NCBI GenBank assembly: GCA_027919835.1
Contig: JANVFP010000020.1
Location: 248,001-312,000, forward strand
Direction: 5' to 3'
Source of the DNA: Lentinula raphanica
Lineage: Eukaryota > Basidiomycota > Agaricomycetes > Agaricales > Omphalotaceae
Length of the DNA stretch: 64,000 nt
Positions 40,665-64,000 of the stretch are shown here, one piece after another (within the stretch, counting starts at the first letter, position 1; every line of letters begins with the position of its first letter). The position numbers were made by a program, and so were the translations under genes. A model generated the notes under the pieces. The model ran no database searches. It saw nothing but the letters and a program-made list of their open reading frames with translations, and was not told the DNA's origin.

Positions 40665-41710
40665 ATGTTCAGTGGTGCACATGATTTCAACATCAGTGAA
40701 GCAACATTCAATGCATCAGGAAGAGATATCAACACCTTGAATTACTATTGTAAGTAGAATATGAGATGGTAGACCTGGTACTATTTGATAATAATGATTG
40801 GAATATTTAGATCTCTCAAGTGATGAAGAGAGCAAATTAAAAGAGTGGCTTGCAGCTCCAGATTATTCTATCCATTTTGCTACAGCATTTAATAAAAGAG
40901 TTGATGGAACAGGCCATTGGATCTTTGAAGATCCAACTTACTTGGAGTGGAAGGAAAATGCTGGCATTCTGTGGATTCAAGGCAAAGGTAATACATATAA
41001 TCATTGTCATTATTTGTGATCAAGTTATTCATTATTGCATGGCAGCTGGATCAGGCAAAACTGTCTTGATGTAAGTGCACCAGTTCTTCAGCTGCTTTAA
41101 AAAATCACTGATAGGTTAAAAATTTTAGTACAGGTATAATTAATCAACTGAGAGAAATGGAATCCTCAAGCTTGATTATTTGTCACTACTTTGATACTCG
41201 TGACAATACTGGAGCCAATACAAGTTACCAAGGATTCTTATTATCACTCCTTTCGCAAATGGGAGCTCAAGATCACAGGATACACCCTGCATTGAAGGAA
41301 CTGCATGAATCATCAAAGCATGGGCTTTCTTATTTCAAGCCTACCAATTCTGAAGTAGCTGATACACTGGAAACTATTACACAAGATCTGATCAAGCAGC
41401 ATCAAATTTACATCATAATTGATGCTCTAGATGAATGTGTTCATAAAGATGTATCCTCAGTCTTGGATTTTCTTACTCAATTGAGTCAAGTGTTTTCTAT
41501 TAGAATCATGATTTCAAGCCGTTATCAGCATGATTTTGAAGGACAGAATTGCTCAACAGTTTCTATGAGTAGCAATAACCAAGTTGATGGAGATATTGCA
41601 ACTTATGTGGAAAACCAATTGCATTTTGTATTCAAGAGTACAAATCTCACAACTTTGAAAGATGAAGTAAAGATAATATTGACTCAAAAAGCAGATGGAA
41701 GGTAAGTTTT

Positions 41711-41741
<31 letters not shown>

Positions 41742-42079
41742 TGATTAAAGCTGAAGAGTAAAACAGATTTCGCTACATTGATTGTCAACTACAGACATTG
41801 AGAAAATGTGTTACTCCAGCAATGGTCAAAAGGAAACTGGCCTTATTACCTTTAGATTTGCAGGAAACATATTCTGAAGCTATCAAGAAGAGTAAAAAGA
41901 GTGAATATGCACAAGAAATACACCATCTTCTTTTATGGCTTTTACATTCTTTTGAGCCTCTATGTCTGAACCAAGTTGCAGTTATTTATTCAATTGATCT
42001 AAAATCATTAGAAGTTGATTGTGATGCACAAATGTTGAGTGGGTTGGAAACAATTGTTGATCCTACATTGGTTACTATT
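40665..42079 (+). pseudogene. NACHT gene 2, 5' half, cut by a KDZ element
   Basis: ATG at 40665 starts the FSGAHDFNISEATFNASG exon. LSSDEESKLKEWLAAPD follows, then the P-loop split by an intron (GK / AGSGKTVL), ICHYFDTRDNTGANTSYQG, Walker B IYIIIDALDEC, and DEVKIILTQKADG, which is in frame here unlike in gene 1. An intron at about 41703-41793 contains a TA microsatellite. The last exon reads to GLETIVDPTLVTI, where it stops at 42079 against the terminal repeat of a transposon. The missing continuation (NKDVVQLAHASVKEFLL...) is found on the minus strand from 52413. The two halves share the 8-bp TTACTATT. No ankyrin part is attached to this half. Confidence 0.85.
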
Positions 42080-42189
42080 CACTTCAGGCAACCCCCCAAA
42101 TATACCAAGTTAGGTAGGTAGACACCTGGCTTATTCCTTACCTAAGTAGGTTCAAATTCCCAGAAAATCCTGATCCCAGGAAATTCCTT
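42080..42189 (+). repeat. KDZ element terminal inverted repeat, arm A
   Basis: This starts CACTTCAGGCAACCCCCC and is identical over 110 bp to 52414-52523. The flank to the left is TTACTATT (42072-42079); the flank of the other arm is its reverse complement AATAGTAA (52406-52413). Confidence 0.9.
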
Positions 42190-43040
42190 TAGACCAGGAA
42201 ATTCCCACTCCACACTTATAAGGAAATTCCCAAGTAGCCCAACAAGTAGGGAATTCCTAGTACTAACTAGGTGTGAAATTCCTTACCTAAGTTGGCTAAA
42301 ATCTTCAGGCATTTCTGGGGTAGGAAATTCCCTATAAGCAGTCAAACAAGTAGGGAAATCCTGGTACCAAGTGAGGGGAATAATTCCTTACCTAAATAGG
42401 CTCAAACCTCAGATATTCTTGTGGTAGGAATTTCCATGGTAAGAATTTCTTATACTGGGAATTTCCCCTGATAGGAATTTCTTATACTAGATCCAGGATT
42501 TCCCTTAATAGGAATTTCTTATAATTAGGAATTTCCCTGATAGGAATTTCTTATACTAGGAATTTCCCCCAATAGGAATTACTTATACTAGGAATTTCCC
42601 CTAATAGGAATTACTTATAACTAGGAATTTCCCCTAATAGGAATTTCCCCTAATAGGAATTTCTTATACTAGGAATTTCCCTGCTAGGAAATTCCTCAGG
42701 TAGAAATTTGCTCAGCTAGGAATTTCTTACATTAGGAATTCCCTTACAGGAATTTCCCCTGATAGGAATTCCCTTACAGGAATTTCCCCTGATAGGAATT
42801 CCCTTACAGGAATTTCCCCTGATAGGAATTCCCTTACAGGAATTTCCCCTGATAGGAATTCCCTTACAGGAATTTCCCCTGATAGGAATTCCCTTACAGG
42901 AATTTCCCCTGATAGGAATTTCTTATACTAGGAAATTCCCTCACGTAAAAATTTGCTCAGGTAGGAATTTCTTACACTAGGAATTCCCTTACAGCTGTGA
43001 GGTAGGAATTTCCTTATGGCAGTAAAGTAGGAATTTTTTG
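42190..43040 (+). repeat. Subterminal repeats of KDZ element, arm A
   Basis: The motif GGAATTTCC or GGAATTCC occurs dozens of times. From about 42737 to 42910 a 30-bp unit (TTACAGGAATTTCCCCTGAT plus AGGAATTCCC) is repeated about six times in perfect tandem. Arm B has the same core motif in a different unit, as expected for transposase-binding subterminal regions. Confidence 0.85.
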
Positions 43041-43122
43041 AAGTATACTTATGCACCAATCTACGTTGAACACAGATATCTGAGCAGAAGTTTTTGCAAT
43101 TTCAACTAAAATCTACAACACC

Positions 43123-44866
43123 CTACATATTCCTTCTACTGGTGGCTATGGCTTTACGGAACTTCATCAATTTTCTTCTCTTCAATGAGGATTGAGTCTG
43201 AGATCTGTCATCTTTCAGACTTCTCTTCCTCTTTCCTAAATCTGCAAGGCGTGAAGGACCTGCAAGTGGCGGAGATGAAGAACCTGCCAGATGAGCAATA
43301 AAACCATCTCCAGCTTCATCCCTTCTTTTCTTTCCTCGCCTAATCCTAGCTTCATCTTCATCCTCGTCATCTTCATAGAGAGGAACCTTACCCCTTTTTT
43401 TACCTTGGTGCAAATCCTTTCTACTATCACCTACACTCTCAACCCAATCATCTACATCTGACACCTTCACTATAGTCTTCCCATTCACATCTATCACCAG
43501 AGGAACATTTCCTTGCTCCTCTGTTCGAAGTTCTACCTCATCTAATCAAGTGTGGATATTAGAATACCAAATATATTTCTTATACAAGTGCACCATACCT
43601 TCAGTCCAATATTCCAACTCATACATCACCGCTCGGATTTCCGGGGCATTGGGAGGGACTTGGTTCAAAAGCGCATCATACTCTCGCTGGAGGTGGGCCA
43701 TCCGCGGCTCGAAAGGCATCCAGATATGATGTGTGGGGAGAGACTTCAAGCTCTTTTTCTCGTTGCCTTCCTTTGTCTCCTCCCCAACCTTAGGAAACGC
43801 AGCCCCTACTGGCCAGTTCTTGATACGAATATGATGTTTCCAAGCTTTGGTGGAAAAGTTATTCAGAGAAATCTTCACTGGCTCTCCCAAGAGTTGTTCT
43901 GCCAACACATATGAGTATAGACATGAATCTGTACCGGTGAAACTCACTGATATCATATTTAAAAATTGCCCCCAAGACCCGTAGCTCCCGATCCTTCCTC
44001 TGTTCACTTCCCTTTCTAAGGGTCTCGGTCATCAGCTCTGATAGCTCCCTATTGGAACTACGTTCATCCATTTCCACCTGTCGGAACATCATTTCGAGAT
44101 CGTGAAGCTGAGTATCCATCTTCGATCCGAAACGCTGCTTCGCTGCTTTCCCTATCTCATCTCCTGCAAAGAAAGCACTCAAACTGCGGCCCATGCGGTC
44201 TCGCTCCGTGCTAATGACCCAACCAATCAAGTGAATCCCTGCCGTCTCATAAAGCCGCTCACCCTACCAAACCATCAATGAGACCGTAAAAATTGATTTT
44301 GGGATGCAACGTACCAAGACCAGAGCAGGCTGAATCATGCTTTTGATGTTAACAGTGATTTTGTCAGAATCCTTAGCACCCCTTATAAACTTATTGAGTT
44401 GGTTCTTGGCCCAGTCCATCTCCTTCTTCATAGCGCGCGCGTAATTTCTTTTATCCTTCATTTCCTCCTTTGAGAGCCGAGACCTGAGCGTTTTCCTGTA
44501 TTGTTTTCTAACAAACCTCGTAAAATCTTGCTTCGTTTCTAAAGTACTTTCAGACATGAACAATAGTTACAACCAATGAGAAATTTACGCTCGCGCCTTC
44601 GCTTCACCTTTCCATTCTCAGCATACCATGACTGAAAGGCATTGAATGGGTTCTCGCGACGGGGAGTTTTGACCTTTTGGTCGAGATACGCAAAGCAAGT
44701 ATGCACATTCTTCCCAGCTTCTGTAGCGATTCGTTTGACATTGGCAGAATACTGAGCTCGAGCCTCATCTAACAAAGCTCGGACTTCTTTCGATAAAGGT
44801 CCACCCTTGAGAGAGACATTTCGTGCTGAACCATCGTGATTGTCACCATCACCATCACTGTTGTTG
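43123..44866 (-). CDS. Accessory gene of the KDZ element, 5'-truncated
   Basis: Exons on the minus strand, from right to left: KEVRALLDEARAQYSANVKR with RRENPFNAFQSWYAENGK (44570-44866); TKQDFTRFVRKQYRKTLRSR and MKKEMDWAKNQLNKFIRG (44310-44545); RDRMGRSLSAFFAGDEIGKA with a helical stretch (about 43950-44225); EQLLGEPVKISLNNFSTKAW, HHIWMPFEPRMAHLQREYDA and VMYELEYWTEG (43590-43900); and a basic, acidic tail rich in KRK ending at 43123. I do not recognise the family. NPFNAF faintly recalls HMG-box starts, but I do not claim it. No start codon is found: the coding frame runs to the edge of the foldback element at 44867 and does not resume beyond it. The gene is transcribed toward terminal repeat A, opposite to how the KDZ gene relates to arm B. 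Confidence 0.6.
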
Positions 44867-47800
44867 CAGCTGATGTTGTAAAAATACTTTAAAACAAGCT
44901 GTGAACTTCACGGTGGTGTATTGTAATCCATACCGTGAACTTCACAGTGCACTAAAAAGTTCACCGGGGCTGCTGGAATAGCTCCGGGAACCTGCTAAAA
45001 ATTGCCGGGGGCCCTCATATAATTCCGAGAGGTCTGTAGATTATTTCCTTTTTGGTTATATTATTTAAATAAATGTATATAGGTAAATAAAATATATATA
45101 AAATCAGTAAAATACTCAAAAATTAGGAGAAAAATGATTTGCTTAAAGAAAGGAGAAAATAACCTGATTGATACATTGCCTTTTTTGGTAAGAATACATA
45201 TAGGGTCCAAATAGGTCTCTAAAAATATGGGAAAAAATCATAAATAATCCAAAAATATACACAGTAGGCATAAAACAATTCTATTGTTAGAAGACATATG
45301 TCTAGGGTATATATTGGTGCCTGATAATAGAAAAATGTCATATGGAATCCAGAATTAGCTAACACAGGGCACTGATTACCTCAGGCACATCAAAACTACT
45401 CAAAAAGGAAATTGGTCTAAAAATAGAACTTGATGTCATCTTGTAGTAAAAAACCTGAAAAGATCATAAAAAATATTGAAAAAATTCAAGGGTGCCTCAT
45501 TGTCCCTGAAAATGCAAAATAAAAAAAAATACGCGACAAGTGTAAAAAATTTTATCACTCCAAATTATACTAGATCCTCTATTCATTCAATATATCTGAT
45601 GCACAAGCTATTTTTAGCACCCCCAGTACCCTCAGGCACCTAGAATAGCTTATATCATTCAATATATTCAGCATACTCAATGCTTATTATACTTAACACA
45701 CTTAACAATGAAAAATCTTAGAATAGTATTCATGTGTATTCTACTCAACACACTCAACAATGAAAAACCTCGAAACAGTGTTCATGTGTATTATACTTAA
45801 CATACTCAACACACTTAACAATGAAAAAACTCAGAACAGTGCTCATGTGTGTTACACTTAACACACTTCATCAATCAATATAATATACTTAACAATCAAA
45901 AACTTGGAGTAGTGTTATCACACATTATACTTAACACACTTCATCAGTAAGTATAACATACCTTCAATAGGACATTGTTATACTATAACACACTTATAAC
46001 AACGAGTTTTGGGCGCTTATGGGCGCTTATTTGGTGTTTTTCAGTCGAAATTCATTAATAGCACACTCAATAATTTTTGTGTGGGCTCTATATCGTGTCA
46101 GGATGTTGTCTATATCATATTCCTCTAGATATAATTTGGAGAACTCGAAAATATAACCTGTGTGGCTAGCTATACTATAATCTTTTGTGATATAACAGTG
46201 TTCATCAGGAAAAATATTCTCATCTTTAGAGTCCCCAGAGATACCCCCCAATTCCTAGGTAGTCTCAGAGAGCCTAGAGTATCTGAGTTCTTTGGGGCTT
46301 CTAAAAGTTCTCTGAGTGCTTTCTAGTGCTTTCTGGTGCTTTCTGGTGCTTTCAGGATCTTTCAGGATCTCTAGGATGTTTTTTGATCTTTCAAAGCTCA
46401 CAAAAATCTCTGAGCAGCCTAGGAATTGGGGGGTATCTCTAGGAACTCTAGAGATGGGAATATTTTTCCTGATGTTTTATATAAATGCCAATGCATATGT
46501 CCATGTAATGCAAGTATACTGATGCTGGTCCATCAGGAAAGGACTCCTACAGTCTACTGGCAGTGTCTGTACATGATTCAGATAGCTATCATCAAGGTTG
46601 GACACTGTGATACACATGTACATGTTTCATGTACACTATAGATGTCTACACTTACATGTAACAATAGATGTCATATTCAATGACCCCCATTACAAATCTC
46701 TTGGCTGTATCACATAGAGTTAGCATAGAATAAGTTGTAGGATGACTCTTTTCATGACCCAGCAGCAGTTTGACTTCATACCATGGGTGTATGCACTGTC
46801 ATTTACATAAAACACTGTTATATCACAAAAGATTATAGTATAGCTAGCCACACAGGTTGCATTTTCGAGTTCTCCAAATTATATCTAGAGGAATATGATA
46901 TAGACAACATCCTGACACAATATAGAGCCCACACAAAAATTATTGAGTGTGCTATTAATGAATTTCGACTGAAAAACACCAAATAAGCGCCCATAAGCGC
47001 CCAAAACTCGTTGTTATAAGTGTGTTATAGTATAACAATGTCCTATTGAAGGTATGTTATACTTACTGATGAAGTGTGTTAAGTATAATGTGTGATAACA
47101 CTACTCCGAGTTTTTGATTGTTAAGTATATTATATTGATTGATGAAGTGTGTTAAGTGTAACACACATGAGCACTGTTCTGAGTTTTTTCATTGTTAAGT
47201 GTGTTGAGTATGTTAAGTATAATACACATGAACACTGTTCTGAGAGTTTTCATTGTTAAGTGTGTTATGTGTGTTAAGTATAATACACATGAACACTGTT
47301 TCAAGGTTTTCATTGTTGAGTGTGTTGAGTAGAATACACATGAATACTATTCTAAGATTTTTCATTGTTAAGTGTGTTAAGTATAATAAGCATTGAGTAT
47401 GCTGAATATATTGAATGATATAAGCTATTCTAGGTGCCTGAGGGTACTGGGGGTGCTAAAAATAGCTTGTGCATCAGATATATTGAATGATTAGAGGATC
47501 TAGTATAATTTGGAGTGATAAAATTTTTTACACTTGTCGCGTATTTTTTTTTATTTTGCATTTTCAGGGACAATGAGGCACCCCTGAATTTTTTCAATAT
47601 TTTTTATGATTTTTTCCGATTTTTTACTACAAGATGACATCAAGTTCTATTTTTAGACCAATTTCCTTTTTGAGTAGTTTTGATGTGCCTGAGGTAATCA
47701 GTGCCCTGTGTTAGCCAATTCTGGATTCCATATGATATTTTTCTATTATCAGGCACCAATATATACCCTAGACATATGTCTTCTAAAAATAGAATTGCCT

Positions 47801-48199
47801 ACTGTGTATATTTTTGGATTATTTATGATTTTTCTCCATATTTTTAGGGACTTATTTGGACCCTATATGTATTCTTACCAAAAAAGATAATGTATCAATC
47901 AGGTTATTTTCTCCTTTTTTAAGCAAATCATTTTTTCCCTAATTTTTGAGTATTTTACTGATTTTATATATATTTATTTACCTATATACATTTATTTAAA
48001 TAATATAACCAAAAAGGAAATAATCTACAGACCTCTCGGAATTATATGAGGGCCCCCCGGCAATTTTTAGCAGGTTCCCGGAGCTATTCCAGCAGCCCCG
48101 GTGAACTTTTTAGTGCACTGTGAAGTTCACGGTATGGATTACAATACACCACCGTGAAGTTCACAGCTTGTTTTAAAGTATCTTTACTGCTACAGGTGG
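44867..48199. mobile_element. Foldback element, second copy, 3.3 kb
   Basis: The left end (about 44867, ending TGTAAAAATACTTTAAAAC) mirrors the right end at 48199, and inverted arms of about 1.33 kb run to about 46202 and 46809. The arms share with the element at 8.9-11.5 kb the CTCAGGCACATCAAAA segment, AACACACTTAACAATGAAAA repeats and GGGCGCTTATGGGCGCTTAT. Unlike that copy, the arms are separated by a unique spacer of about 600 bp. The spacer contains a smaller element at 46203-46474. No transposase is present. Confidence 0.85.
46203..46474. mobile_element. 272-bp MITE with CATCAGGAAAAAT ends
   Basis: The left end CATCAGGAAAAATATTCTC and the right end, read in reverse, CATCAGGAAAAATATTCCC form inverted repeats. 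The internal AATTGGGGGGTATCTC is also paired with CCCCCCAATT on the other side and matches the subterminal motif at 18280. Flanks are T-rich (TT on both sides), so the target duplication is uncertain. Confidence 0.75.
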
Positions 48200-48955
48200 T
48201 CAATTCGCGTTTGGACTTGAGACCACCATCAAAACGTTTTTCCAAATCGGGCACCCCGATTCCATCGTTCTAGAATCAGACCAACAGAGTCATGTGATCG
48301 GATCAACCTAGTCATCTGACCGTGGTGATGATGTCATCGGCTTTCGAGGGCTCAAGCCTAAGAGGGGGATACTGTTACGACCATAATCCTCGGAGCTTCA
48401 CTCGGCGATTGGACTTAGAGATTTCCTGAATCTCTCCAGTCTTACCTAGCAGTGTCCGCCTTGTCCCTCCTTCCAATGCTGTCGGCGTATTGGTCTGGTA
48501 TTATACTTTTGATTATGATCTTATTGTTTTATTCTCTGACAGCTCAGCTGACCTTTATATTGATTTACTTTACAATAGCTTATTGTCTTTCTCACCTCTG
48601 ATGCTGTAGTACCAAAATGTGTATCGCCTTATTGTACTTTAGATTAGACTGACTATCCATACAGTATATAAGGAGCCTGTACATACTTACCTACCTCAGT
48701 TTTAATATCAACTTGGATTACCTCATTAACGTTAACACTCACCTCTGTGCTCTCGGTGTCATCTTGATCATTGATCATTGCCGACTCCGAACCTCCATTG
48801 GACTTCGTACATGTTGTACTTGTCCTCATCTGCTCTCTTGGTTGAACACGGTAACATGGCGAGGGTGTTGCTCAATAACTTAACAACACTAACATTCAAC
48901 AATCCTCTGTGTCTCTGATCGGAGCTCCAACTCTGTCGGTGGCAAGGTCCTAACA
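48200..48955 (+). mobile_element. Gypsy-like 3' remnant and LTR
   Basis: After a short stretch resembling the 3' end of a pol gene comes the purine tract AAGAGGGGGAT. A likely LTR runs from TGTTACGACC at 48373 to CCTAACA at 48955 (583 bp, TGTTA...TAACA ends). A TATA-like TATATAAGGAG lies inside at about 48664. The 5' LTR and internal genes are absent. Confidence 0.65.
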
Positions 48956-49066
48956 CAAGTTGATTTTGAGGTCAAGCCTACAGTACAAACTACTAAGGCT
49001 TATATACCAGTCTTGGAGTAATCAAGTTCCAAAGCTGTCAAGTAATTAACAATGACTACTGTAAAA

Positions 49067-51575
49067 TCATAACAAAAGAATAAATGTACTCATTGTAAAA
49101 TGAAAGACAATAAGAGTGATAAGCATAAAGACAATAAGGAGTGTGGCTGTGTATCTGAATTGGACCAGAGTAGCTCCAGATTGGAGCCCCTTCATTCTTG
49201 CCTGCTCTGTATCCTTCTCCCTCTCCTTCCCCCTATCCTTATTATCTGATTTTTCTTCCCTTTTCATCTTCTCTACCTCTTGTTCTTTCTCAGTTTGTCC
49301 ATATGCCTCAGCTGCCATATTTTCTTGCTTTTCTCTAGCTTCTTGTTCTATCTCTACAATCTCTGTATAATACTCTCCTTGATTATCAATATTTGCACCA
49401 TAATCTTCAAGGAGTTTGATAATATTATGATGACCCTGAGATACTGCTGCTGAAAGTGCTGTCTTATACTCTCCACCCTGGATATTGACATTTGCATTAT
49501 ATTTCAAAAGTAACTCAGTAATATCTTGATGGCCCACAAATGCTGCTACTTGAAGTGCTGTTCCAAGATATTTTGCCAATGTATCAATATTTCCTTGAAA
49601 ATTTGAGATTCTGCCAAAACTGAACTGATACATCTTTGAATAACTTACCTGTGGTTGATATAAGGTTTGTTTTGTGAGATACACTACTTTGATTTATGGA
49701 ATCTTTTGTATTATCATTGAATAATATTTTTTGAGCAGTTCTTATCAAGCCAAAGAATGCAACAATATGCAAAGGAGAACAATCTCCAAATATTTGACCT
49801 GTTATTGGAAATTTGGAATAATCATCATTAGTATATTCATTCTTCCATTTTATGAAAGAAGCAGAATTCCTCTCTAAAAAGACTTGAGTAAGCTGTATTG
49901 TACTTGCAACTGGATCTTCAGCTTTCTCATTGTATTGACTATGTTCACCCCAATATTGAGTTGCATATTTCCTGAATGTATCAACTGTAGATTGAGTATC
50001 ATCATGATCTATAATATCATCTTTACTTTGTTGTAACAGATAAATGAGTGACATTTGAGCAATGATATTATGTGCTATTTGTGCATTGAGATTGAATGAT
50101 TTTCTGACTTGAGTATTATTGCAGCTTGTGATCAGAAACTCCTTCACAGTGGCATGTGCAAGCTGGACAACCTGATTACCATCAATAGTAATTAGAGTAG
50201 TATCAATAACATTTTCTAATGGCCCCAGCATGCCAGTATCAAATTCAAGTGTCAATGATTCTAAATCAAATGAAAGGATTGTTGAAACTTTACTCATATG
50301 CAAAGGTTCAAAAGAATATAGAAGCCATAAAAGCAGATGATGTGCATTCTCAGAATTGATACTTTCTTTACATTTTTCAAGAGCTTTTATATATATATCC
50401 TCCAAAGTTGCAGGTAACAAAACTAGTGTTTTTCTTATACTGCCTGCACTGACACATTTGCTCAATAATTGAAGCTGACAATTGATATAATAGAAACTGA
50501 AGTTGTGTTATATTTCAATATAGAGCAGAGTAATACAACTATCAAAACTTACCCTCCATCTGCTTTTTTCATTAATGCTATCTCCACTTCACCTCTTAAT
50601 AATGGACTTAGATATGATGTTTGTCTTTTTATATAAGTAAAAATATCATTATCAAGCCTATCTTCATTGTTCAGAGATATTTGAAGGCAACAAAATTCCT
50701 TGGGTGCATTATTCCTACTTGTGATCACTATTCTGACTAATGAATAGCTAGTTATTTTCACAAGAAATTCCCAAATTAATTTAGTCTCCTCATATTTACA
50801 TTCATCCACAGCATCAATTGAAATATAGATTTGATGCTTCTTTTGAACCAGATCCTCTGTAATTTCTATTAATGCATCAACTGCTTTAGAACAGGTAAGT
50901 TTGAACTCAGAAAGCCCATGTTTAGATGATTCATGTAGATGTTTCAGTACATGATGAATTTTCCTGTTATGGGCACCAAGTTGTAAAAGAAGTGATGCTA
51001 GTAAGCCTTGGAAATTTGTTTTGCCTCCAGTGTTATCACGAGTATCAAAGTAGTGACAAGCAGTCAAACTTGAGGGACTTGTATCCATGAGATTTTGAAT
51101 GATAGTTGTGCTAAATAAATGATTCATCAATTTATAATCTTATAACTAGGACAAATCAGTAAACTTGCATCAAAATAGTTTTTCCAGATCCAGCTGCACC
51201 ATAATGACAGTGGTCAGAGTCCCAATCTGAGATCATAATTCATTATACCTTACCTTTTCCTTGAATCCATAAAATATTTCCTCCCTTTTCTTCCTTCCTC
51301 CACTTGAGAAAAGTAGAATCTTCAAGGATCCATTCACCTATTCCTTCTAGCCTTTTATCTAAAGCAGCTGAAAAATTGATAGAAGAATCTGGGGCAGCAA
51401 TCCAAGTCCTGAGTTTTTCCTCTTCATCACTTGAGAGATCTAAATATTCCAATCATCATTACTGAATAGTAGCATTTCTTATATTCTACTCACAATAATA
51501 GTTGTTGTTGATATCTCCTCCTGATGCATTGAATATTGCTTCACTGATGTTGAAATCATGTGCACCACTGAACAT
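49067..51575 (-). CDS. NACHT-ankyrin protein with C-terminal membrane segment (gene 3)
   Basis: ATG at 51575 starts the FSGAHDFNISEAIFNASGGD exon. LSSDEEEKLRTWIAAPDSS follows; the P-loop is again split by an intron (GK / AGSGKTIL, about 51175-51245). The NACHT exon (about 50560-51130) has ACHYFDTRDNTGGKTNFQG and Walker B IYISIDAVDEC. The next exon (to about 49630) has CVSAGSIRKTLVLLPATLED, VVQLAHATVKEFL and SPLHIVAFFGLIRTA. The last exon holds only about two or three ankyrin units (GTALQVAAFVGHQDITELLL), then a Lys/Glu-rich coiled coil, and ends with a hydrophobic helix (ATLLIVFMLITLIVFHFTM), a likely membrane anchor. No stop or frameshift is seen, so this is the one apparently intact NACHT gene here. 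It has diverged from copies 1 and 2. A role in recognition or cell death is inferred from the class. Confidence 0.75.
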
Positions 51576-51745
51576 GTTGATAATCTTGCAAACAGATTGA
51601 GTATCCTTATAAAACAGTAGTTTACCTAGAAACCCACCTTATCTGCTGTGTAGCTGCCACTGTCAGTGCAAATATACAATAGTAAATATCAATATCATAT
51701 AATAACTGTTCAAATACCTTGTCTTGGAAAATCCTTGTAAGACAA

Positions 51746-52413
51746 CTATCAAAACTTCAATGACATTCTTGAAACCCTTTGATGCTGCTATTTGAATTGC
51801 ATGCCCTAACTGAATCTCCATGTTAACATTATCTAATACCCATTTTTAGAACTATTTGACATTTATTGATGAATTCTATTATATCACCTACCTGAATCAA
51901 GAATAGCCTCTAACTCATCACTCTGAAATCTTAGACTGTTTAGACTATCTTGGTTTACTAACATTTTTGCACTTCTCTGCAATCCAAAGAATGCAATAAT
52001 ATCCAATATGTTGTAGTCTTCAAATTTATCAATCACTGGGAGTCTTAGTTCTTGAAAATAATTTCTCTTCCAGTTTGAAAGTGAAACACTCTTTAGAAAG
52101 GTTTCTGTGAGTTTTATAGTATGTTCACATGGAATCTTTGCCCTTTCATTGTATTGGCTATGTTCTGCCCAATATTGAGTTGCATATTGCTCAAATGTAT
52201 CAATATGCCTGATTTTTATATTATATTGTGATGTTTTCCATATCTGGTGGTGAACATTTTGTTGTAGAAGATAAATGATACACATCTGTGCTATTATATT
52301 GTGTGCTAGATATGCATTGATTTCAAATAACTCTCCTGCATCATCATGGTTCTCAAGTAAGAATTCCTTAACAGATGCATGTGCAAGTTGAACAACATCT
52401 TTATTAATAGTAA
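51746..52413 (-). pseudogene. NACHT gene 2, 3' half, inverted and fused
   Basis: From 52413 the minus strand reads NKDVVQLAHASVKEFLLEN..., continuing exactly where the half at 40665-42079 ends, with the 8-bp TTACTATT present at both cuts. It goes on through IDTFEQYATQYWAEHSQYNE and NILDIIAFFGLQRSAKMLVN, an intron, and the start of the first ankyrin unit (LGHAIQIAASKGFKNVIEV). At about 51745 it switches into the 5' leader of the next gene (TTGTCTTACAAGG). It has no start and no array. Confidence 0.85.
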
Positions 52414-52523
52414 CACTTCAGGCAACCCCCCAAATATACCAAGTTAGGTAGGTAGACACCTGGCTTATTCCTTACCTAAGTAGGTTCAAATTCCCAGAAA
52501 ATCCTGATCCCAGGAAATTCCTT
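52414..52523 (+). repeat. KDZ element terminal inverted repeat, arm B
   Basis: It is 110 bp identical to 42080-42189, next to the inverted target duplication AATAGTAA. In the gene's own orientation this is the opposite end of the element from arm A. Confidence 0.9.
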
Positions 52524-53140
52524 AATGGCAGGAAATTCCTGACTTTTGGTTATTAGGAAGTCCCTACTTAGACATCACTTAGGAAATTCCTAATACCAAA
52601 TTAGGTCAACAATTCCTGACCTAAGTAGGCCCTGATTCCCAGACATTCCTGGGGTAGGAAATCCCTTGGCAAGGAGTTTTTAGCATGGGAATTTCCCAAG
52701 GCACAAAGTTCTACTAGGAATTCCCTTGAGTAAGAATTTCCTCAAGTAGGAACTCCCTTATGCAGGAATTTCCTCAGACAGGAATTCCCTTTAGTAGGAA
52801 TTTCCTCATACAGGAATTCCTTTCAGTAGGAATTTCCTCAGACAGGAATTCCTTTCAGTAGGAATTTCCTCAGACAGGAATTCCTTTCAGTGGGAATTTC
52901 CTCAGACAGGAATTCCTTCCAGTAGGAATTTCCTCAGACAGGAATTCCTTTCAGTAGGAATTTCATCAGTAAGAATTTCTTAAACTAGGAATTCCCTAGG
53001 TAGGAATTCCCTTAAGTAGGATTTCCCAGGTAGGAAGGAATTTTCTAAATTTCCCTAAGTAGGAATTCCCGAAATTTCCTAAGTAGGAATTCCCTGACCC
53101 TTCTTAAGTAGGAATTCCCTCAACTTTATTGCAGAACTCA
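52524..53140 (+). repeat. Subterminal repeats of KDZ element, arm B
   Basis: GGAATTCC and GGAATTTCC recur throughout. From about 52765 to 52960 a 32-bp unit (CAGACAGGAATTCCTTTCAG plus TAGGAATTTCCT) repeats five to six times. Confidence 0.85.
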
Positions 53141-53179
53141 TGTAACAGACATTTGATATTCTATCAACCAGTGACAATA

Positions 53180-56100
53180 TCAATATTCAGTATCATCATC
53201 ATCCAATACACTTCCAGCAGCATCTGCCAATTCTAATGTATCCATGCACTCTAACAAGCCCACATCGAGATCATCATCATCAAAAACACTAAACTCATCT
53301 GAACTTTCATCAACACCAGCTTCATCTGCATATTTTGTTATATCTGTTTCTGTTTCAAGAAGGTCTTGAATCATAACCAGATCAGAATCACTGGGACCCC
53401 AGTTATCGTTGGCCATGGGATAAGGTATCTTTCTCAAGTCCTTTTTCCAAACCAACAATAACTGCCCCAAGTAGACTCTGCGGTTGTGAAGCTGATGTAG
53501 AATATCTAGAAAGTGGAAAAGTGGACAAATGAGAACTTGACTTATCAAAGATGTTTGAATTACCTGGATCCATGACCACATCAATACTGTCTGTAACAAC
53601 TTGCCATTCCTCCCGCATCCACTGCTGCAGTGACCGCATCTCGTGTTTCAAACGAAGAAACTCTTCATCACATCTGTCTCGCAACAAGATGCTTCTAATC
53701 CCCCTTCGGACATTCTCATCACAAAGCCAAAGTGGAGGATTCTGGCCATCACTGGTTTCATCCAAACCCACATCTTGCCATATGTTGTCATCCACATCCA
53801 AGTTGAACAAGTCCTTCATGGGAATCAGTTTTGGTGAGGTTACATTGTGAGGCGCACGTTTTAAATCAATGAGTCGTTGCATCTCCGTGCATAAAGAGTT
53901 GTAGTGACGAGCTAGTTTCTGAATGCTAGGATCACGTTTCTTTACAGAGTCCTCAGTATGGATGTGGACTTTTCGATCTGTAATATTCATGAAGCATAAG
54001 TGAAGGGATAGAAGTCAAGCCAATAAGCCTACCATTATGTTGTTGTCGCCGAAATGATCGTTCAAGCCGATCACATTCAAACTTCCGTGCTGTCAATCTA
54101 CTACGAAGGCGCATCTTGATTGCCCTCGCATTCATCCGCAAGTTAATGAAAGGACTTCTAGCAAGATGTTGGTAGGATGCCTTGTCCTCGACACCTAGTT
54201 TCTGCTCCTCATGCAGAAGAGCTAACCTTGAATCAGACAATCTTTTTTGAAGGGCTGGTAGCTGAGCTTCTGCATCAGCAATGTCGTAGTCTTCGGCATC
54301 CAGGTCAGAGATTATTTCTTCAAGCTTTGAGATCCGATCGACCAGAGTCTCGCAAGCCTTTTTCAAACGCAAGGCAGTCTCAACGGCTTTCCTTCCTGCT
54401 TGTCTAGATTGGCCTGCCAGTGAACACACCTGATAAGACTAAGTGAAGAAGGGAAAACATGGAAGCCACATACGAGGAAGAGGTTGAGTCTGCGCTATGA
54501 CCTGACTCTTCCATTGTTCACGAAGAAAACCAACTCCATAGTTTGATTCCTTCACATCGTTATCGGCCTCATGGTACTTCACTTCTGCATTCATCCATTT
54601 GCGTGCAAGCCACTTGCCTATATTCATCAAACTTTCCCTTGAAGAATGCTCAACCTGGCTATCAAGAGTATAGAGGCGGAGATGATGCTGTGAACTCATT
54701 ATCAGTAATCATTTTAAATTGGATTCATTAGTACCTACACCGCACACACGCAGGTAAGCGATGAGCTTACTGATTGAGTGCCAGAACCGCTCACAGCCCT
54801 CCCCATCTGAGAGCCCAAACTGCTCACACTTTCGGGGATGATAAACACATTGGCAAGCCCATCCGTGACCGTAGGCATGAAACACAGATATTGCAAATGT
54901 TATTCGGTCAAGATAGTCATTGAGGAAGCCCCAGCGGACACAGCTGCGATGAAGCTGACAGCCTATATCGTATAGGATACCGACTGTCCAGGTACGGGGA
55001 AGATGTTGGAAGAGAAGGTCGATCAAGGTGAATGCATAATGCTGTCTTTCACCTGGTGAAGTCATGTTAACAAGCCACAACACGCGATCGTGCCGGCACA
55101 GTAACCCCATCAGTGCGGTGGAATTGAAGAATTGAGAGCTTGCTTTCTCTCTGGTTTCATCGGCGGCGGTGAAACTCTGCTCGCATGCATCTAGCACTGA
55201 ATTCGGAACCTTCAGTGGTCCCTCAAAGGCGTCAGTGTGTTCAGCAGTTGAATTCTTCCCCTTATCACGTCTGCCCTTGGAAGGTCGGACATCATCCACC
55301 AAATCTTCCCAAGCTTTCACTGTAGACTCCGGGACGAACACTGTTTTTGGATGACAACGCGGAGGATCTTGCTGCTGTTTATTATGTTTTTGGGTAAAAC
55401 ATGCATCGATACACACGATACTATTCAATCTAGTGGAGTTGAATATCATTAGCATGGCAAGCACAGCAAGAAAGAGTACCCTTACCCTTCACTGATAGTA
55501 CGATTTCCACCAAAGCACAGTGGGCATCTCGCACGTAGATACTCACTGGGCCGTGTCAGATCTGGGACTGTGACCTCATCATCGGATACATCACTCTCTT
55601 CATCAACTTCCCTCTCTCTCTCCACTCCTGGATCCACGAATTCAGAGAAATCCTTCGATGGTTCATCGCATTCAGGAAGCCATGAACGAGAGACAGCGAG
55701 TGTTGAATCGATGAGCTGCGTAGTCGCCTCGCGTAGACTGTTATACCACTGTAACGCATTTCCAAACCGTCTTCGAAGAGGATCCTGCGAAATTGATCAG
55801 TCTTGGCCAGATGGGAGTACGATGATACACAAACCTCTCCCCTCATGTTATATCCTTGAGCACCCAGAAACGCTTGGATGGTATCAGCCAATGCTGTCGT
55901 ATTCGGTGAAATTCGAAGGAATAACCGTCCAACAAACTCTAAGACAGGCATCTCCACTGCCAGACTTGGCTGTAAAGGAGCGCAAGGAAATAGACCATGT
56001 TCTACCAGCTGTACTGCTGCCGGTCGACATGGACAGACCAACAGAGACAATCTCTGCAGCTCTGTGGGATCATGAGAAGGTCTTCCGAGGTTCTCAAATG

Positions 56101-56604
56101 AGTAAACTCACCACGAAACCTCACAATCAGAACAGACAGTTCAATCTTTCTGTTCGAGCATGTACAACCCCTCGTTATAGGCGTTGGATCATTCTTCAAG
56201 TTCTCTGTCTCCCTCAACAACTTCATGTACGGCTTGATGACCTTTGGGATGACCTCGGTTACCCAACGGCGAAATTGCGCGAGCCGTTTGCGAGAGTGTG
56301 GAGTAGGTGCTTCTGGGACAGCACTGACTTGAACCTCACCACCGCCTTCAGTCGAGTGACGTGACATGGTGGCGGTGAGCAACTCGCTGGGGCGCTCCCG
56401 AAGTCCTACTTGTCCAAGCGGAATAGGTAGACGAGTTTTTTGCGTGAATTTTTTACCATTGGCTAGGTAAATCGTAGGGAGAGCGGCGAGCGTGCGTTTA
56501 CGTTTCGGAGATTTTACTGGAACAAAAGAATAATCGGGCGTAGATGCAGAAGCTTGAGTATCTGCTAATGATTTTCGTTTCTCTGCTCTGATTCGGGGAC
56601 GCAT
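53180..56604 (-). CDS. KDZ (Kyakuja-Dileera-Zisupton) transposase
   Basis: ATG at 56604 (MRPRIRAEKRKS) starts about nine exons. After a basic leader there is a CxC-type cysteine region with CPCRPAAVQLVEHGLFPCAP and VLEFVGRLFLRISPNTTALA, then DPLRRRFGNALQWYNSL and SEYLRARCPLCFGGN. The catalytic part has CIDACF (first Asp), ILYDIGCQLHRS (second Asp) and FGLSDGEGCERFWH (Asp/Glu), all present. A coiled-coil region (SKLEEIISDLDAED..., LTARKFECDRLERSF) and DENVRRGIRSILLRDRCDEE follow, and an acidic tail ends at 53180. These are the diagnostic motifs of KDZ transposases. No internal stop is evident and splice sites look good, so it may be functional. It is transcribed toward arm B. Confidence 0.9.
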
Positions 56605-56829
56605 GGCACTGAAAAGAAGATATAGTAAAGGTTGATGGTGCGGTTGACAGAGCGCGCCGCGCGCTGAACCTCGAACGTTTGGTCACGATATTTGACACAG
56701 CATTATTTGATACTCTACAACGGTAACATATGGCTACAGTGTCAACAGAGCAGTAGTAGTGAGCTACATATTGAGGTGATCGGTGACGCCAAGAAGGCAT
56801 GAAATCAACGGATGAGTACTGACCGAAGA
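56605..56829. other. Junction between KDZ gene and MFS fragment
   Basis: No feature is recognised. One end of the inferred inversion should lie here. Confidence 0.4.
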
Positions 56830-57000
56830 CGTAGAGAGTGAGACCGAGTTCTGCGTACGTTAGGCCGACGTGGAACGACTCCATGATTCCTGGAATGGTG
56901 GCGATGCATATTGCTGACAGTGAGCCAACGTAAGAGGTGAGCGTCATCCAGGTGACACAGAACCCAAGGAAGGCTCGTTTCTTTGATGACCAGTTCCTGC
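56830..57000 (-). pseudogene. MFS transporter exon fragment
   Basis: One exon flanked by a 3' splice site (TTTCTTCCGCAG, about 57001) and a 5' splice site (GTCAGT, about 56826) reads NWSSKKRAFLGFCVTWMTLT, GSLSAICIATIPGIMESFHV and LTYAELGLTLYVFG. This is the first membrane helix and following loop of fungal drug/H+ antiporter-type MFS transporters. A weak upstream piece (about 57060-57130) may belong to it, but the other eleven or so helices are absent. The gene was probably cut by the rearrangement at the KDZ element. Confidence 0.6.
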
Positions 57001-57785
57001 GGAAGAAAGGTATGAAGACGTTGGCGTTTTAAAAAAGAGATTGACGAACTTTGGGTTGGCTGAGCATCTCAGAAGATATCTGCGACCATGGCGTTGCTGC
57101 TTGCAGGATGCCAGATGGCTTCAAGCTCGAGTGGTCAAAGTGTGGCCGTTGAGCGTGGACTCAGGGAACTAGAGCTTGAGCGAAGTCCTAGGAGCCTGTC
57201 CAATAACGAGAGCGTTGGTGAGGATCTTCCCAAGAGCTGAGAAGAGACGCCGGAAGCTCAGAGAGGAATCAAAGGTGTCGTGGCCAATTATTTACTGGGA
57301 ACAGCTCTCCGAGGCAGCCATGAACACCAGCAGAGCCTTGCCTAGATGAGGGGCTGGGCGTCTGCTGGGTTCTCAGTAGGAAGAACGGGGGGATATAGGG
57401 GGCTTTAACGAGGACGGTGGTATTTGACGTGAAAGAATCCGTTAAGGGACATGAGATCTTGAAAAGCGTAGCTACAAGCGAGAGTCGATCGTTCTCTCAG
57501 GGGAGAACGACTTTAACGAGTATCGCACTCGCTGGCTTCCCTCCTCCATCCTCACAATTACCCCCCGCCTTCACAAGAGTTCCACCCGATATACAGAGGT
57601 TAGTGAGTCTACATGAAGGCGCATCAGGTCACGATCAACAAGTTAAGCAATGTACACTGTACCGGTCACTGTCTTCGTTGGTTATGACGACAAGAGATAG
57701 CGACGACGGTAGAGACGAAAATAGGAAGAGAAAGAGATAGGCCCTTCGAGTAATCAGAGGTTGTCGATATATGTTGAAAATGATA
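57001..57785. other. Intergenic, no recognised gene
   Basis: No domain is seen in the short ORFs on either strand. Confidence 0.4.
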
Positions 57786-58326
57786 CATCAGGAAAATATC
57801 CCTCATACTCAGGCCTATATGAGTCTACTTCAGAGAATCAGGTTGTCCTAGGGCTCATAAGTCTATGAATTCTCTTGAGTGACTTGAGCCAAGGTTGACT
57901 TTTTTCATGTACCCAAGTTAGCTTGGGTTAGCTTAGAGTTAACCCAGGTAACCTGGGCTGGATGGAAGCTTAACCTGAGCTAACTCTAGTACAACTTGAT
58001 TCAACCTATATCAACTGGAAGCTAGTTTGAGCTAATATAGAGTCTCTTCAAGTTGATTTCAAATAGCCCTAGTTAGTCCCAAGTTTAACTGAGTTCAACA
58101 AAGTTGTCACCAGATAAGACTAAGTTATCTCAGGTATTGCACTAGCCTGACTTGAATCAACTCTAACGTAGATCAAGACGTTTGAAGTTGCTCAAAAGGT
58201 ATCTTAATTCAACTTTATATTGCCTTAGCCAAAAGGCGTCAAAAATCACATTAAATGAGCTATAAAATACTTGTAAAGAACGTAGAGCAAGATTAGGGTA
58301 TAGGACTTGAATGTAACCAAGATGAA
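57786..58326 (+). repeat. Terminal repeat and subterminal region of second DUF6532 element
   Basis: It begins CATCAGGAAAATATCCC, matching the terminal repeat at 18457 and the 46203-46474 element. Up to about 58200 follow irregular repeats around AACTTGATTCAAC and TTAGCTTGGGTTAGCTT. The following gene is transcribed toward this end, as in the 15-18.5 kb element. Confidence 0.6.
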
Positions 58327-60274
58327 TTAGCATTCAGCTGCAGCAGTAGCTTCTAGGTCTGCTAAATCTACCTCCTTCATGTCGTCAGCCTCTACATCTA
58401 AAAGAAAAGTCTTGTTGGATTGATTGCTATTGAGAGAGAGCGAATGCTATGAATATCTTCAAGAGCAAAAGTTATAAGAGAGAGCGCTTACAGAACTAGA
58501 TTAAAAAGTTTAACCTCAAACTTATCAGCCCAGGTGGGTGCTGCTTCAGCTACACGGTTATAGGAAGCAAGGTGATAGTGATAGCTAAAGAACATTCAAT
58601 TAGAAACTCTGAGTAGAAGTAGAACAAACACGCCTACTGACCGTGTTTTTGCAGCATCTGTAAATTCAGAATTACGATATGTCCCCTCTGAATATTCCAT
58701 AAGGGCATGTTCCAGCTAAAAGATTCATGAGATCAACTCTAAAAAATCAACAACGGACTTACAACAGTGACCATCAAGGCAATGGTAGGTACAGTAATTC
58801 GTTTAGCTGCAACCAGCTCTTTGAAGACAGCTATATTAGCACCACCCTTGGTAGCGAAATATTCTAGCCTAAGCAGATGAGCTATGCCTTCAGCTTCGAA
58901 GGGTTTCTTTTTATCAAAAGAACGCATCTAAAAATCCTTAGCTTGAACATGAACAGGTTTAAGTTTATTCACTCACCTCTATATTGACCCCCCCGTATTT
59001 GAAATGTCCATCACTGAGAAGCCAAGCAACTATATCTTTGACCTCCGAGGACTTGCGTGTTCCAGGGAGAGAGTAGTGACTGGCTATGAACTCTCGAGCT
59101 TTCTTAGCCAAAGAGGTAAACAGCCCTCCACGTGCATAACCCATCTATAGAACAGAGGTATGGGTAAGAAAAAAGTAAGGGAAGAGAGAGATAAACTTAC
59201 GAAAGAAGTTAATAATTTTTGAACATCTGTATCGTCTTTGAGGGATTCAAAAACTTCCACCAAATTTTCTACAGCTGCTGTAGACCTTGCTACCTCCAGA
59301 AAGAAAGCGTGCTTGTCTAAGGGAAAAGCATCTTCTATAGTGGATACCCTACGCGCATGACGTTTACCTGCAACAGCAAGCTTACGCGTTCTAGGACTGA
59401 ACATATTGGACGTGACTTTGTAGACTTTGCGCTTTACAGGAGAACGAGAGTATGAGCTTCTGGTGTAGGGCTTTGTAGGAGAGACATTCAGTCGTTGACG
59501 GAGCTTGGTTCGCTCAACAGCCGCTTGAATTGAAGATCTCTTGGTAGGAGAAGAGAAGGTTGAAGAAACAGTAGGCGAAGTTTTGGCCACATCAATCTGT
59601 AGATATATCAGTGAGATAACCTAGCTAGAAAAACAAAAGGACGTACTCCATTGTCTGGAATATCAACTTCCATATCTTGAAAGTCCTCAACCTCTTCGTC
59701 TTGAGGGATGACGTGTTCCTCATCTGAATCATTGACCTCTTGGTCCTCTTGGTCTACGTTGCTCTCTACTCCTCCTATATAAATAGTTATAAGCATTTGA
59801 TATTGACACGTATTAACTCTTACCAAAAATCTGGTTGAATTCTTCTTCATCAACGTCAGAGGTGGCAGGAGGAGAAGTAGCTGTAATCTCTTCTTCACTC
59901 ATATCCGCTTCTTCTGAAGCTTTAACTGCCTTGGCTTTTTCCCGTATATCTAAGAAAGACGTCAAGTAGGTAAATAAATAGGTAAAGGACGTACCTTTCT
60001 TCCTCTTTTCTTCTTCAGAACGAAGAGCCTCAACCTTGAGATACTGAGCAGCCCGTGTTCCTACTAGAGGTGCTCCTGGTGTAGAGGGAGCAGGAGAAGA
60101 AGCAGCTTTCTTCTTAACATTAGCAGCTTTAGATTTTGTAGTACTTTTAGAAGCAGCGGTGACGGCAGTGGTGTTTTTAGACGTAACGACAGAAGACCTT
60201 GTGGACCTAGTAGTAGAAGTAGAGGAACGGGTAGTCCTACTAGCAACCTGAGCACTAGACTTCTTGTTGGTCAT
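58327..60274 (-). CDS. DUF6532-like protein, second copy
   Basis: ATG at 60274 (MTNKKSSAQVAS) and TAA at 58327 bound about nine exons. The first 250 residues are Ser/Thr/Lys rich and then acidic, apparently disordered, with SPVKRKVYKVTSN as a basic patch. The folded part has HAFFLEVARSTAAVENLVEV, MGYARGGLFTSLAKKAREFI, SHYSLPG, AWLLSDGHFKYGGVNIE, HLLRLEYFATKGGANIAVFK, TVPTIALMVTVVLEHALMEY and YRNSEFTDAAKTRYHYHL. The order MGY / YSL / helix / PTIALMVT / YHYHLASY matches the gene at 15.2-17.2 kb and resembles DUF6532. It ends acidic (EADDMKEVDLADLE). Function unknown. It is parallel to and just downstream of the dioxygenase gene (about 110 bp apart). Confidence 0.6.
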
Positions 60275-60384
60275 AGAAAATAGAAAGACAAAGGAGAGCA
60301 AGTAAGGTGAGAGATGAGAGTTAAGAAATAAGGCGCTGAAGCACTTGTGACGCTCAACAAAAGTTAATTATGTAAGCCATGTGA

Positions 60385-63300: not shown

Positions 63301-63893
63301 GCTCCTGCTCTGGCCTGTGTCGGCAGTTAGAATCACCCATAACCCCTATTGCCAAGAATGCCTACCTTTTCGTAGTTTTCATCGTCGACGTTAACTCCCA
63401 CTTGGTCGGCCAACCACTCCTCTACAGAGAACGCGGGGGAATCTGCTTGATCTTGGAACCAGCGATCGGTGAAATCAAAACCGACCAACGTCAGATTGTC
63501 ATCGTCGGTTTCCTCTCCGGGCCCTGGTTGGCTGGAAAGGTAAGAGTCCGAGCCAGGAGTGCAAGATTCTCCTGGAGGAACAAGGGGAATGCCCAAGAGA
63601 ACGTCCGAAGAAGGAGAAGGAGAGGCGGAGGAATTTTGGGAAGAAGGGGTAACCCTTTCATCAGAAACTAGGCCTAACTCTCTTTCTCTTCTCTGCACTT
63701 CTCTTTCTCTTCTTTCCAAATCCCTCAAACGCTCTTCTAAGCCATTTATCCTTGAACTGGATGAGCCTCTAAACTGGGAGTCTAGGCGGGCAGGTAAGTC
63801 GCGCTGTTGAGAGGGCAAGAGATGAGAGTTTTCGTTTAGGAAGTCGATTATGAACCGGAGTTGGTCGTCCGTGACTTGACGTGAGGAGGACAT
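60385..63893 (-). CDS. TET/JBP-like 2OG-Fe(II) dioxygenase
   Basis: I start it at ATG 63893 (MSSSRQVTDDQLRFI); it is about nine exons long, ending at 60385. The first 400 residues are mostly disordered: a coiled coil of Arg/Glu (LRDLERREREVQRRERELG), repeats of the type SPGQSDNSPGQ, and acidic runs. A conserved middle has LVNLTRLLGRVESIDSGVTF, LGTVYLLMIIARKPG and YYSIPKNLICQNL. The C-terminal third has FFTTFHFSTWGRYGQK and DVHPFFLRCAKG. The catalytic domain has SFVLNINVQTVAHKDNGD (iron-binding H-x-D), GGGLCLFEPRVVLDLRHGDW, and FPSRFLTHFNLKYQGIRCSA (distal His and the 2OG-binding Arg). This matches the fungal tet-like oxygenases that are expanded in Agaricomycetes and often linked to transposons; they are expected to oxidise 5-methylcytosine, which is inference here. 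All key residues are present. It might be two genes divided near 62530. Confidence 0.75.
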
Positions 63894-64000
63894 GACGGCG
63901 GTCGAAGAAAAGTTTGGTCGTCGCCCAAAAAGGAAATGACGACGGCAGGGGAAAACGAAAAGTTCGTTCACGTGCCAGATCATTTCCAGCGCTTATTTTC

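What the first reader, a model, noticed from the sequence alone, without database searches (positions are those of the whole stretch)
42072..52523. A KDZ transposon split a NACHT gene, and one half was then inverted
Two gene halves, 40665-42079 (+) and 52413-51746 (-), each end at an identical 110-bp terminal repeat starting CACTTCAGG. The flanks are TTACTATT and its exact reverse complement AATAGTAA. Joining the halves through one TTACTATT gives an uninterrupted frame (LVTI + NKDVVQLAHAS) that aligns with gene 1 (LVTTDKDKVVQLAHAS). So one element with an 8-bp target duplication entered one gene, and a later inversion with a breakpoint inside the element flipped the distal half with the KDZ transposase. 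The present order (half 1, arm A, accessory gene, other DNA, gene 3 in minus, half 2 in minus, arm B, KDZ gene in minus) is what a single inversion predicts. As I remember, Zisupton-type elements make 8-bp duplications, which fits.
Basis: partly seen in the sequence, partly recalled or inferred. Interest (0 to 1): 0.85.

Follow-up and report, generated by a model that had tools for sequence, protein, structure and literature searches.

The report
Mushroom jumping gene flipped by repeats
In a mushroom genome (shiitake genus), a large jumping gene landed inside an immune-type gene, and a 28-kb stretch holding most of it appears to have been flipped later between two near-identical copies of another repeat, a clear example of a known kind of rearrangement, seen twice in this genome.

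Summary
A KDZ-type DNA transposon inserted in a NACHT/NPHP3-type gene with an 8-bp duplication (TTACTATT). Most of it, with the distal gene half, is now inverted. The inversion is larger than the window shows: 48,199 to about 76,402 in window numbering (28 kb). Beyond the window I found the element's missing middle, ending at a second copy of the palindromic repeat 'P' that also ends arm A (window 44,867-48,198). The two copies are inverted to each other and almost identical. The Gypsy element cut off at 48,199 resumes at the far side of the second P. So one inversion between the P copies restores three broken units: the NACHT gene, the KDZ element and the Gypsy. A second KDZ copy in this genome shows the same picture with another repeat ('D'), with 2-bp duplications exchanged. 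The likely mechanism is ectopic recombination between inverted repeats (as for Galileo in Drosophila). The D pair is 100% identical, while the other long D matches scored are at most 94%, which keeps one-step aberrant transposition alive. Assembly error at the inverted repeats cannot be excluded without reads. New member of a known kind.

The parts
40665..42079 (+). proximal half of the split NACHT (NPHP3_N) gene
   Evidence: Pfam NPHP3_N PF24883 E 3e-15 on 41157-41702; 90.5% identical to gene 1
42072..42079 (+). target duplication copy 1, TTACTATT
42080..44866 (+). arm A of the KDZ-type element: terminus (first 110 bp identical to the other terminus), repeats, part of an accessory gene on minus
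   Evidence: C7 copy el 1-330 97.6% and el 1141-2969 91.6%; ends at palindrome P_1
44867..48198 (.). P_1, palindromic repeat at the inversion breakpoint (arms about 95-96% identical in the aligned pieces, longest ATG ORF 67 aa)
   Evidence: inverted near-identical partner P_2 at C20:324403-327460, about 76403-79460 in window numbering
46203..46474 (.). 272-bp CATCAGG...CCTGATG insert in the centre of P_1; central spacer 612 bp here against 338 bp in P_2
   Evidence: spacers from the coordinates
48199..48955 (+). truncated Gypsy-type element: 3' end of the interior plus 3' LTR (about 48373-48955); its upstream part is at C20:327460-328246 (-)
49067..51745 (-). gene 3, a NACHT paralogue carried in the inverted segment
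   Evidence: Pfam NPHP3_N E 1.9e-16 on 50552-51130; self-BLAST to gene 1
51746..52405 (-). distal half of the split NACHT gene, inverted
   Evidence: 86.5% identical to gene 1; frame continues half 1
52406..52413 (-). target duplication copy 2, AATAGTAA on +
52414..57398 (-). arm B of the same element with the KDZ transposase gene; continues after a nested repeat at 69096-76402 beyond the window
   Evidence: Pfam KDZ PF18758 E 9.2e-57 on 54712-55464

Best explanation
Step 1 (shown from sequence): a KDZ-superfamily transposon inserted in one NACHT gene and made an 8-bp target duplication. Step 2 (anatomy of the assembly): a copy of a palindromic repeat family, P, came to lie inside the element (at about el 2969-3192), and another lay about 28 kb away in a Gypsy element, in opposite orientation. 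Step 3 (inferred): homologous (ectopic) recombination between the two inverted P copies flipped everything between them: most of the KDZ element with the transposase, one copy of the target duplication, the distal gene half, gene 3 and the end of the Gypsy. The NACHT gene was already broken by the insertion. The flip leaves the element's termini in direct orientation with the duplication inverted, and probably stops it from moving as one unit.
For: (a) Inverted 8-bp duplication, 110-bp identical termini, restored frame. (b) The missing middle of the element lies beyond the window in the orientation of arm B and tiles with arm A without overlap. (c) It ends at C20:324402; from 324403 a second P matches P_1 over its first 1,198 bases with 1 mismatch and 3 one-base gaps in 1,199 columns, inverted. 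Its other arm scores 2394 bits against 2415 for self over 1,339 bases. (d) The Gypsy truncated at 48199 resumes at C20:327460-327470 in minus; in the coordinates of the C36 copy the two pieces abut, with an overlap of up to 10 bases that fits a 7-bp duplication, GTCAATT, once the ends of P are allowed for. The Gypsy piece was predicted there before the search was run (note). (e) A second case: in C1 the same element family has direct termini with an inverted 7-bp duplication CTAGGCC. The breakpoints carry inverted D copies, 100% identical over 976+81 bases, whose 2-bp flanks (AG, TG) become direct duplications only if the segment is turned back. (f) P copies also sit at deletions: in C7 about 4.1 kb of interior that C1 has is missing at a P with two CAGCTG ends and no duplication (the window copy has about 3.1 kb of it); in C14 about 0.5 kb is missing at a P.
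Against: No duplication is visible around P on the element side (...GTTGTTG | P | TGTCCTC...). The P pair is closer to each other than to the next copy scored (99%, left arm), and the D pair is 100% identical against 88-94% for the other matches of 500 bases or more among those scored. Independent old copies would not predict that; it needs a recent local hop or a one-step transposition. The element is a mosaic (arm B 72-79% to C1/C7, other parts up to 98% to one or another copy). No un-inverted allele was found. I could not read the letters at the far end of P_2.
Confidence: 0.57

Rival explanations
1. Hybrid-element insertion (alternative transposition): the ends of two sister copies of P (or D) at one site were used together and inserted at the second site, making the inversion and the second repeat copy in one step.
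For: Predicts identical copies at both breakpoints (PMC2775673, section 10 part 1 of 2 read). D1/D2 are 100% identical while the other D matches of 500 bases or more among those scored are 88-94%. P_1/P_2 are closer to each other than to the next copy scored. P_1 has one end of each of the two kinds seen, as P copies with duplications do.
Against: A recent local hop followed by recombination predicts the same identity. No transposase for P or D was identified or looked for. Palindromes with two like ends and no duplication (C7, window 8897-11499) look like recombination products.
Confidence: 0.28
2. Assembly error: the chromosome is not inverted; the assembler turned the segment between the inverted repeats.
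For: Both cases have long near-identical inverted repeats at the breakpoints (about 3.06-3.3 kb and 1.06 kb), the classical place for such errors.
Against: No N in 299,830 fetched letters (overlaps counted) and contigs of over 1 Mb suggest reads longer than these repeats; P_1 and P_2 differ by a central insert that was resolved. None of this is proof.
Confidence: 0.1
3. Reversed-ends transposition of KDZ itself: termini of two different KDZ elements inserted together in the NACHT gene, making split and inversion in one event.
For: Gives direct termini with an inverted duplication; arm B is more diverged from C1/C7 than arm A.
Against: It predicts two whole elements, but the arms are complementary pieces and no further terminus is near. 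It does not predict inverted P copies at the inner breakpoints or the split Gypsy.
Confidence: 0.03
4. Two unrelated KDZ insertions whose flanking 8 bases match by chance.
For: None found.
Against: Chance 1.5e-5 for 8 bases at one pair; the frame is restored; no further terminus between -9899 and 77600.
Confidence: 0.01

Closest known systems
Galileo-generated inversions of Drosophila buzzatii (PMC2775673; passages and section 10 part 1 seen)
   Same: Inversion flanked by two inverted copies of a long-inverted-repeat, foldback-like element, with exchanged target duplications
   Different: Here the repeats are P and D of a mushroom; one repeat copy lies inside another transposon, so the flip splits that transposon; chimerism of the copies could not be shown; on the P element side no duplication is seen
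KDZ1 of Cryptococcus neoformans (PMC12810828; passages seen)
   Same: KDZ transposase, about 11 kb, 241-bp terminal repeats, 8-bp target duplications
   Different: The element here is at least 15 kb in C7, carries nested repeats and an unidentified accessory gene, and two copies are split by inversion
Ac/Ds alternative (reversed-ends) transposition in maize (PMC8225341, PMC3744419; listing and abstract starts only)
   Same: Yields inversions or other rearrangements bounded by transposon ends
   Different: Uses termini of nearby elements; here KDZ termini are not at the inner breakpoints, though P or D could have done it
Kyakuja elements of Agaricomycetes (PMC12730594; passages and section 3.2.1 seen)
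   Same: CA..TG ends and 7-bp duplications, as I read them also for P copies in C1 and C7
   Different: P shows no long ORF and is palindromic; no link to a transposase was tested

Membership tests
KDZ superfamily transposon | KDZ transposase domain | tested here: met
   PF18758 E 9.2e-57 on window 54712-55464; also two exons of the C7 copy
KDZ superfamily transposon | long terminal inverted repeats in an intact-ended copy | tested here: met
   C7 copy: 1-235 against 15135-14901, 97.4%
KDZ superfamily transposon | 7-8 bp target duplication | tested here: met
   9 of 9 terminus pairs tested have 7 or 8 bp: 7 normal pairs, 2 inverted pairs; a further pair on C27 was not tested
KDZ superfamily transposon | which branch (Zisupton, Kyakuja or Dileera) | not tested
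   No tree was built
TE-mediated inversion by ectopic recombination | same repeat in opposite orientation at both breakpoints | tested here: met
   P_1/P_2; D1/D2
TE-mediated inversion by ectopic recombination | exchanged target duplications | tested here: inconclusive
   C1/D: met for both copies, but only 2 bp each. Window/P: Gypsy side consistent with 7 bp from alignment ends; element side none
TE-mediated inversion by ectopic recombination | chimeric repeat copies | tested here: inconclusive
   Copies too alike to show exchange
TE-mediated inversion by ectopic recombination | un-inverted parental order in other strains | not testable with these tools
   The genome tool holds no relatives of this genome; a protein search found no near-identical intact allele

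The most novel reading that the evidence does not exclude
Non-autonomous repeats nested inside large KDZ elements repeatedly flip part of their host element in one step, by hybrid-element (alternative) transposition from inside the element to a site outside it (or the reverse). That would explain why 2 of the 5 long copies tested are flipped and why the flanking D copies are 100% identical when the other long D matches scored are at most 94%. It would be a transposition-driven route to inversions in mushrooms, with palindromic P elements as hubs that also leave deletions.
Probability: 0.25. Interest if true: 0.6.

Novelty: new member of a known kind. Interest (0 to 1): 0.42.

Why it matters
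It shows from one assembly how nested repeats turn large DNA transposons into inversion sites, and how an inverted target duplication can be read as a rearrangement scar. Two such scars in one element family make the question 'recombination or aberrant transposition' testable in mushroom strains, which bears on how groups of immune-type NACHT genes are reshuffled.

Tried and rejected
KDZ reversed-ends transposition was the first serious rival. It was dropped when the element's missing interior, the second P and the Gypsy's other part were found. I first took the C7 copy as the full element and thought the arms came from two elements, because arm B was about 72-79% and arm A about 92% or more identical to C7. 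C7 turned out to lack about 4.1 kb that C1 has, of which the window copy has about 3.1 kb. The window interior is 85-91% to C1 over 69096-73567 and 94-98% to C14 in two further pieces, so different parts resemble different copies. This mosaic is unexplained. Search for an uninterrupted allele by protein: 7 hits of 304 candidates, identities 34-58%, none near-identical. A tRNA idea for the short repeat near 57.3k: none found by ARAGORN with its bacterial setting. Pfam on four accessory-gene pieces: no family. Whether P_1 and P_2 are chimeric could not be decided.
Full report
WHAT THE WINDOW IS. The window is contig C20, 248001-312000, of a 49.06-Mb, 75-contig genome with no relatives held. A MAGE/Nse3-type exon at 28344-29015 is 99% identical, over 54% of the query, to a Lentinula raphanica protein and 71% identical (81% of the query) to L. 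edodes. So this is L. raphanica or a close relative, a wood-decay mushroom (lifestyle recalled).

THE OBSERVATION. Both junctions are as described: TTACTATT|CACTTCAGG at 42072/42080 and AATAGTAA|CACTTCAGG at 52406/52414. The first 110 bases of the two arms are identical, and the joined frame runs through and aligns with gene 1. Pfam gives NPHP3_N (a NACHT-type NTPase domain; the NACHT link is recalled) for half 1 and gene 3, and the KDZ transposase for 54712-55464.

THE ELEMENT FAMILY. The 27-base terminus has 15 exact places in the genome and 24 with up to 3 mismatches. Nine terminus pairs were tested for target duplications: 7 in normal orientation (C7, C3, three on C48, C20:777848, C24) and 2 in direct orientation with the duplication inverted (the window, 8 bp; C1, 7 bp). 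A further pair on C27 and the single terminus on C42 were not fetched. The single termini on C14, C28 and C7:1011158 have flanks that do not match one another. The three C48 copies share one duplication sequence and look like one insertion multiplied with its surroundings. Among the five long pairs tested (termini 10 kb or more apart: C7, C20:777848, C24, window, C1), two are flipped.

ONE ELEMENT, TWO PIECES. The C7 copy (15,135 bp, termini inverted, 97.4% over 235 bp) gives the normal order. Arm A of the window matches el 1-2969 only. Arm B begins with the other terminus and the KDZ gene. At 57398 arm B is interrupted; in C1 coordinates it resumes 83 bases further on, at 69096 in window numbering, to the right of my window. 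From there it runs to 73567, straight through the site where the C1 copy is broken, in the orientation of arm B (85-91% to C1). The next stretch (el 3192-4498) appears as four short matches at C20:324107-322269 in minus and matches the C14 copy at 94-98% in two pieces; a half copy of P is nested there (74550-75753). In C1 coordinates the pieces tile: 1608020-1610546 (arm A), then 1610747-1611178, patches to 1612219, 1613381-1615944, 1606950-1605082, then the KDZ exons. They do not overlap. About 200 bp of an acidic-repeat region are unaligned between arm A and the rest, and some interior stretches are too diverged to align. No further terminus lies between -9899 and 77600 in window numbering.

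THE BREAKPOINTS. Arm A ends at 44867, where a 3.3-kb palindromic repeat, P_1, begins. P_1 ends at 48198, and the next base belongs to the 3' part of a Gypsy-type element (about 174 bp of interior plus the LTR). On the other side, the element's inner end at C20:324402 is followed by a second P. Its first 1,198 bases match the right arm of P_1 in inverted orientation with 1 mismatch and 3 one-base gaps. Its other arm (C20:326128-327460) matches the left arm of P_1 with 2394 bits, against 2415 for self. I then predicted (note) that the missing part of the Gypsy must follow. It does: C20:327470-328246 in minus ends where the query ends, one base before the window piece starts, in the coordinates of the C36 copy. 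With a longer query the two pieces overlap by up to 10 bases, which fits a 7-bp duplication GTCAATT next to P once the ends of P are allowed for. Turning back the 28.2 kb between the two P copies would therefore repair the NACHT gene, the KDZ element and the Gypsy at once.

A SECOND CASE. In C1 the termini at 1596879 and 1608020 are direct, with CTAGGCC inverted. The segment between the interior breakpoint and the flank is bounded by D1 (1606951-1608005) and D2 (1615944-1617224), a CATCAGG...CCTGATG repeat in inverted orientation, 100% identical apart from an extra stretch of about 225 bp in D2. The window's contig is uninterrupted at that interior site. If the C1 segment is turned back, D sits between AG and AG inside the element and between TG and TG in the flank.

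MECHANISM. Recombination between inverted repeats explains the anatomy with known steps, and is my first choice (0.57). Aberrant transposition of the repeat itself (hybrid-element insertion) predicts the same picture with identical repeat copies (PMC2775673, section 10 part 1 of 2 read). The D pair is 100% identical, while the other D matches of at least 500 bases, among the 40 of 176 candidates scored, are 88-94%. The P pair is also closer to each other than to the next copy (99%, left arm; 40 of 959 candidates scored). I give that rival 0.28. A recent local hop followed by recombination would look the same. Against a clean recombination story, P inside the element has no visible target duplication. 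Assembly error at inverted repeats is the third possibility (0.1). No N in 299,830 fetched letters (overlaps counted) speaks for a long-read assembly but does not settle it.

P AS A HUB. P copies in C1 and C7 that have one CAGCTG end and one CACAGGATAC-type end are flanked, as I read the boundaries, by 7-bp duplications (for example GTCCAAC), one pair with a mismatch. Two palindromes with two CAGCTG ends (C7 element; window 8897-11499) have none, and the C7 one stands in place of about 4.1 kb of the element. This suggests that P copies recombine or rearrange often. P_1 has no long ORF (67 aa). CA..TG ends with 7-bp duplications recall Kyakuja (PMC12730594, section 3.2.1 read), a lead only.

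RELATION TO KNOWN SYSTEMS. KDZ1 of Cryptococcus has 241-bp termini and 8-bp duplications (PMC12810828, passages seen). Inversions by ectopic recombination between foldback-like elements are known from Galileo. In the rows shown by the paper searches (titles and abstract starts; some lists capped) I saw no paper on inversions inside KDZ elements. Of the six papers that hold KDZ together with inversion, I looked into one only (PMC12810828, passages), so this is no proof of absence.

VERDICT. Its repetition in one element family and the near-identical repeat pairs give it moderate interest.

Noticed in passing
window 51745/51746: Half 2 stops near the start of the ankyrin region (by comparison with gene 1) and is joined directly to the upstream region of gene 3, so the split gene had probably already lost its ankyrin repeats at a junction between tandem paralogues.
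   Followed up: partly
window 8897-11499: A 2.6-kb near-perfect palindrome (arms 99.2%) with two CAGCTG ends and no target duplication; same P family as 44867-48198.
   Followed up: partly
window 57398-64000 and on to about 69.1k: Another large repeat nested in arm B, with relatives at C4:695795-702248 and C1:1639502-1645949 (about 75%); no Pfam match for three ORFs tested.
   Followed up: partly
window 57312-57385: Short stretch of about 60-73 bp repeated on many contigs at 86-97%; no tRNA found by ARAGORN.
   Followed up: no
G000:C48:274236-298795: Three copies of a 2.3-kb non-autonomous relative with the same target duplication TAATTACA, 10-12 kb apart: probably one insertion multiplied with its surroundings.
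   Followed up: no
window 13070-14146: Plavaka transposase fragment (PF18759, E 2.2e-54).
   Followed up: no
window 21774-24335: Very regular ankyrin-like repeats (my reading of the translation) in gene 1, 853-aa ORF.
   Followed up: no
G000:C7:1010355-1014048: A KDZ terminus fragment of about 0.42 kb sits inside a P copy.
   Followed up: no
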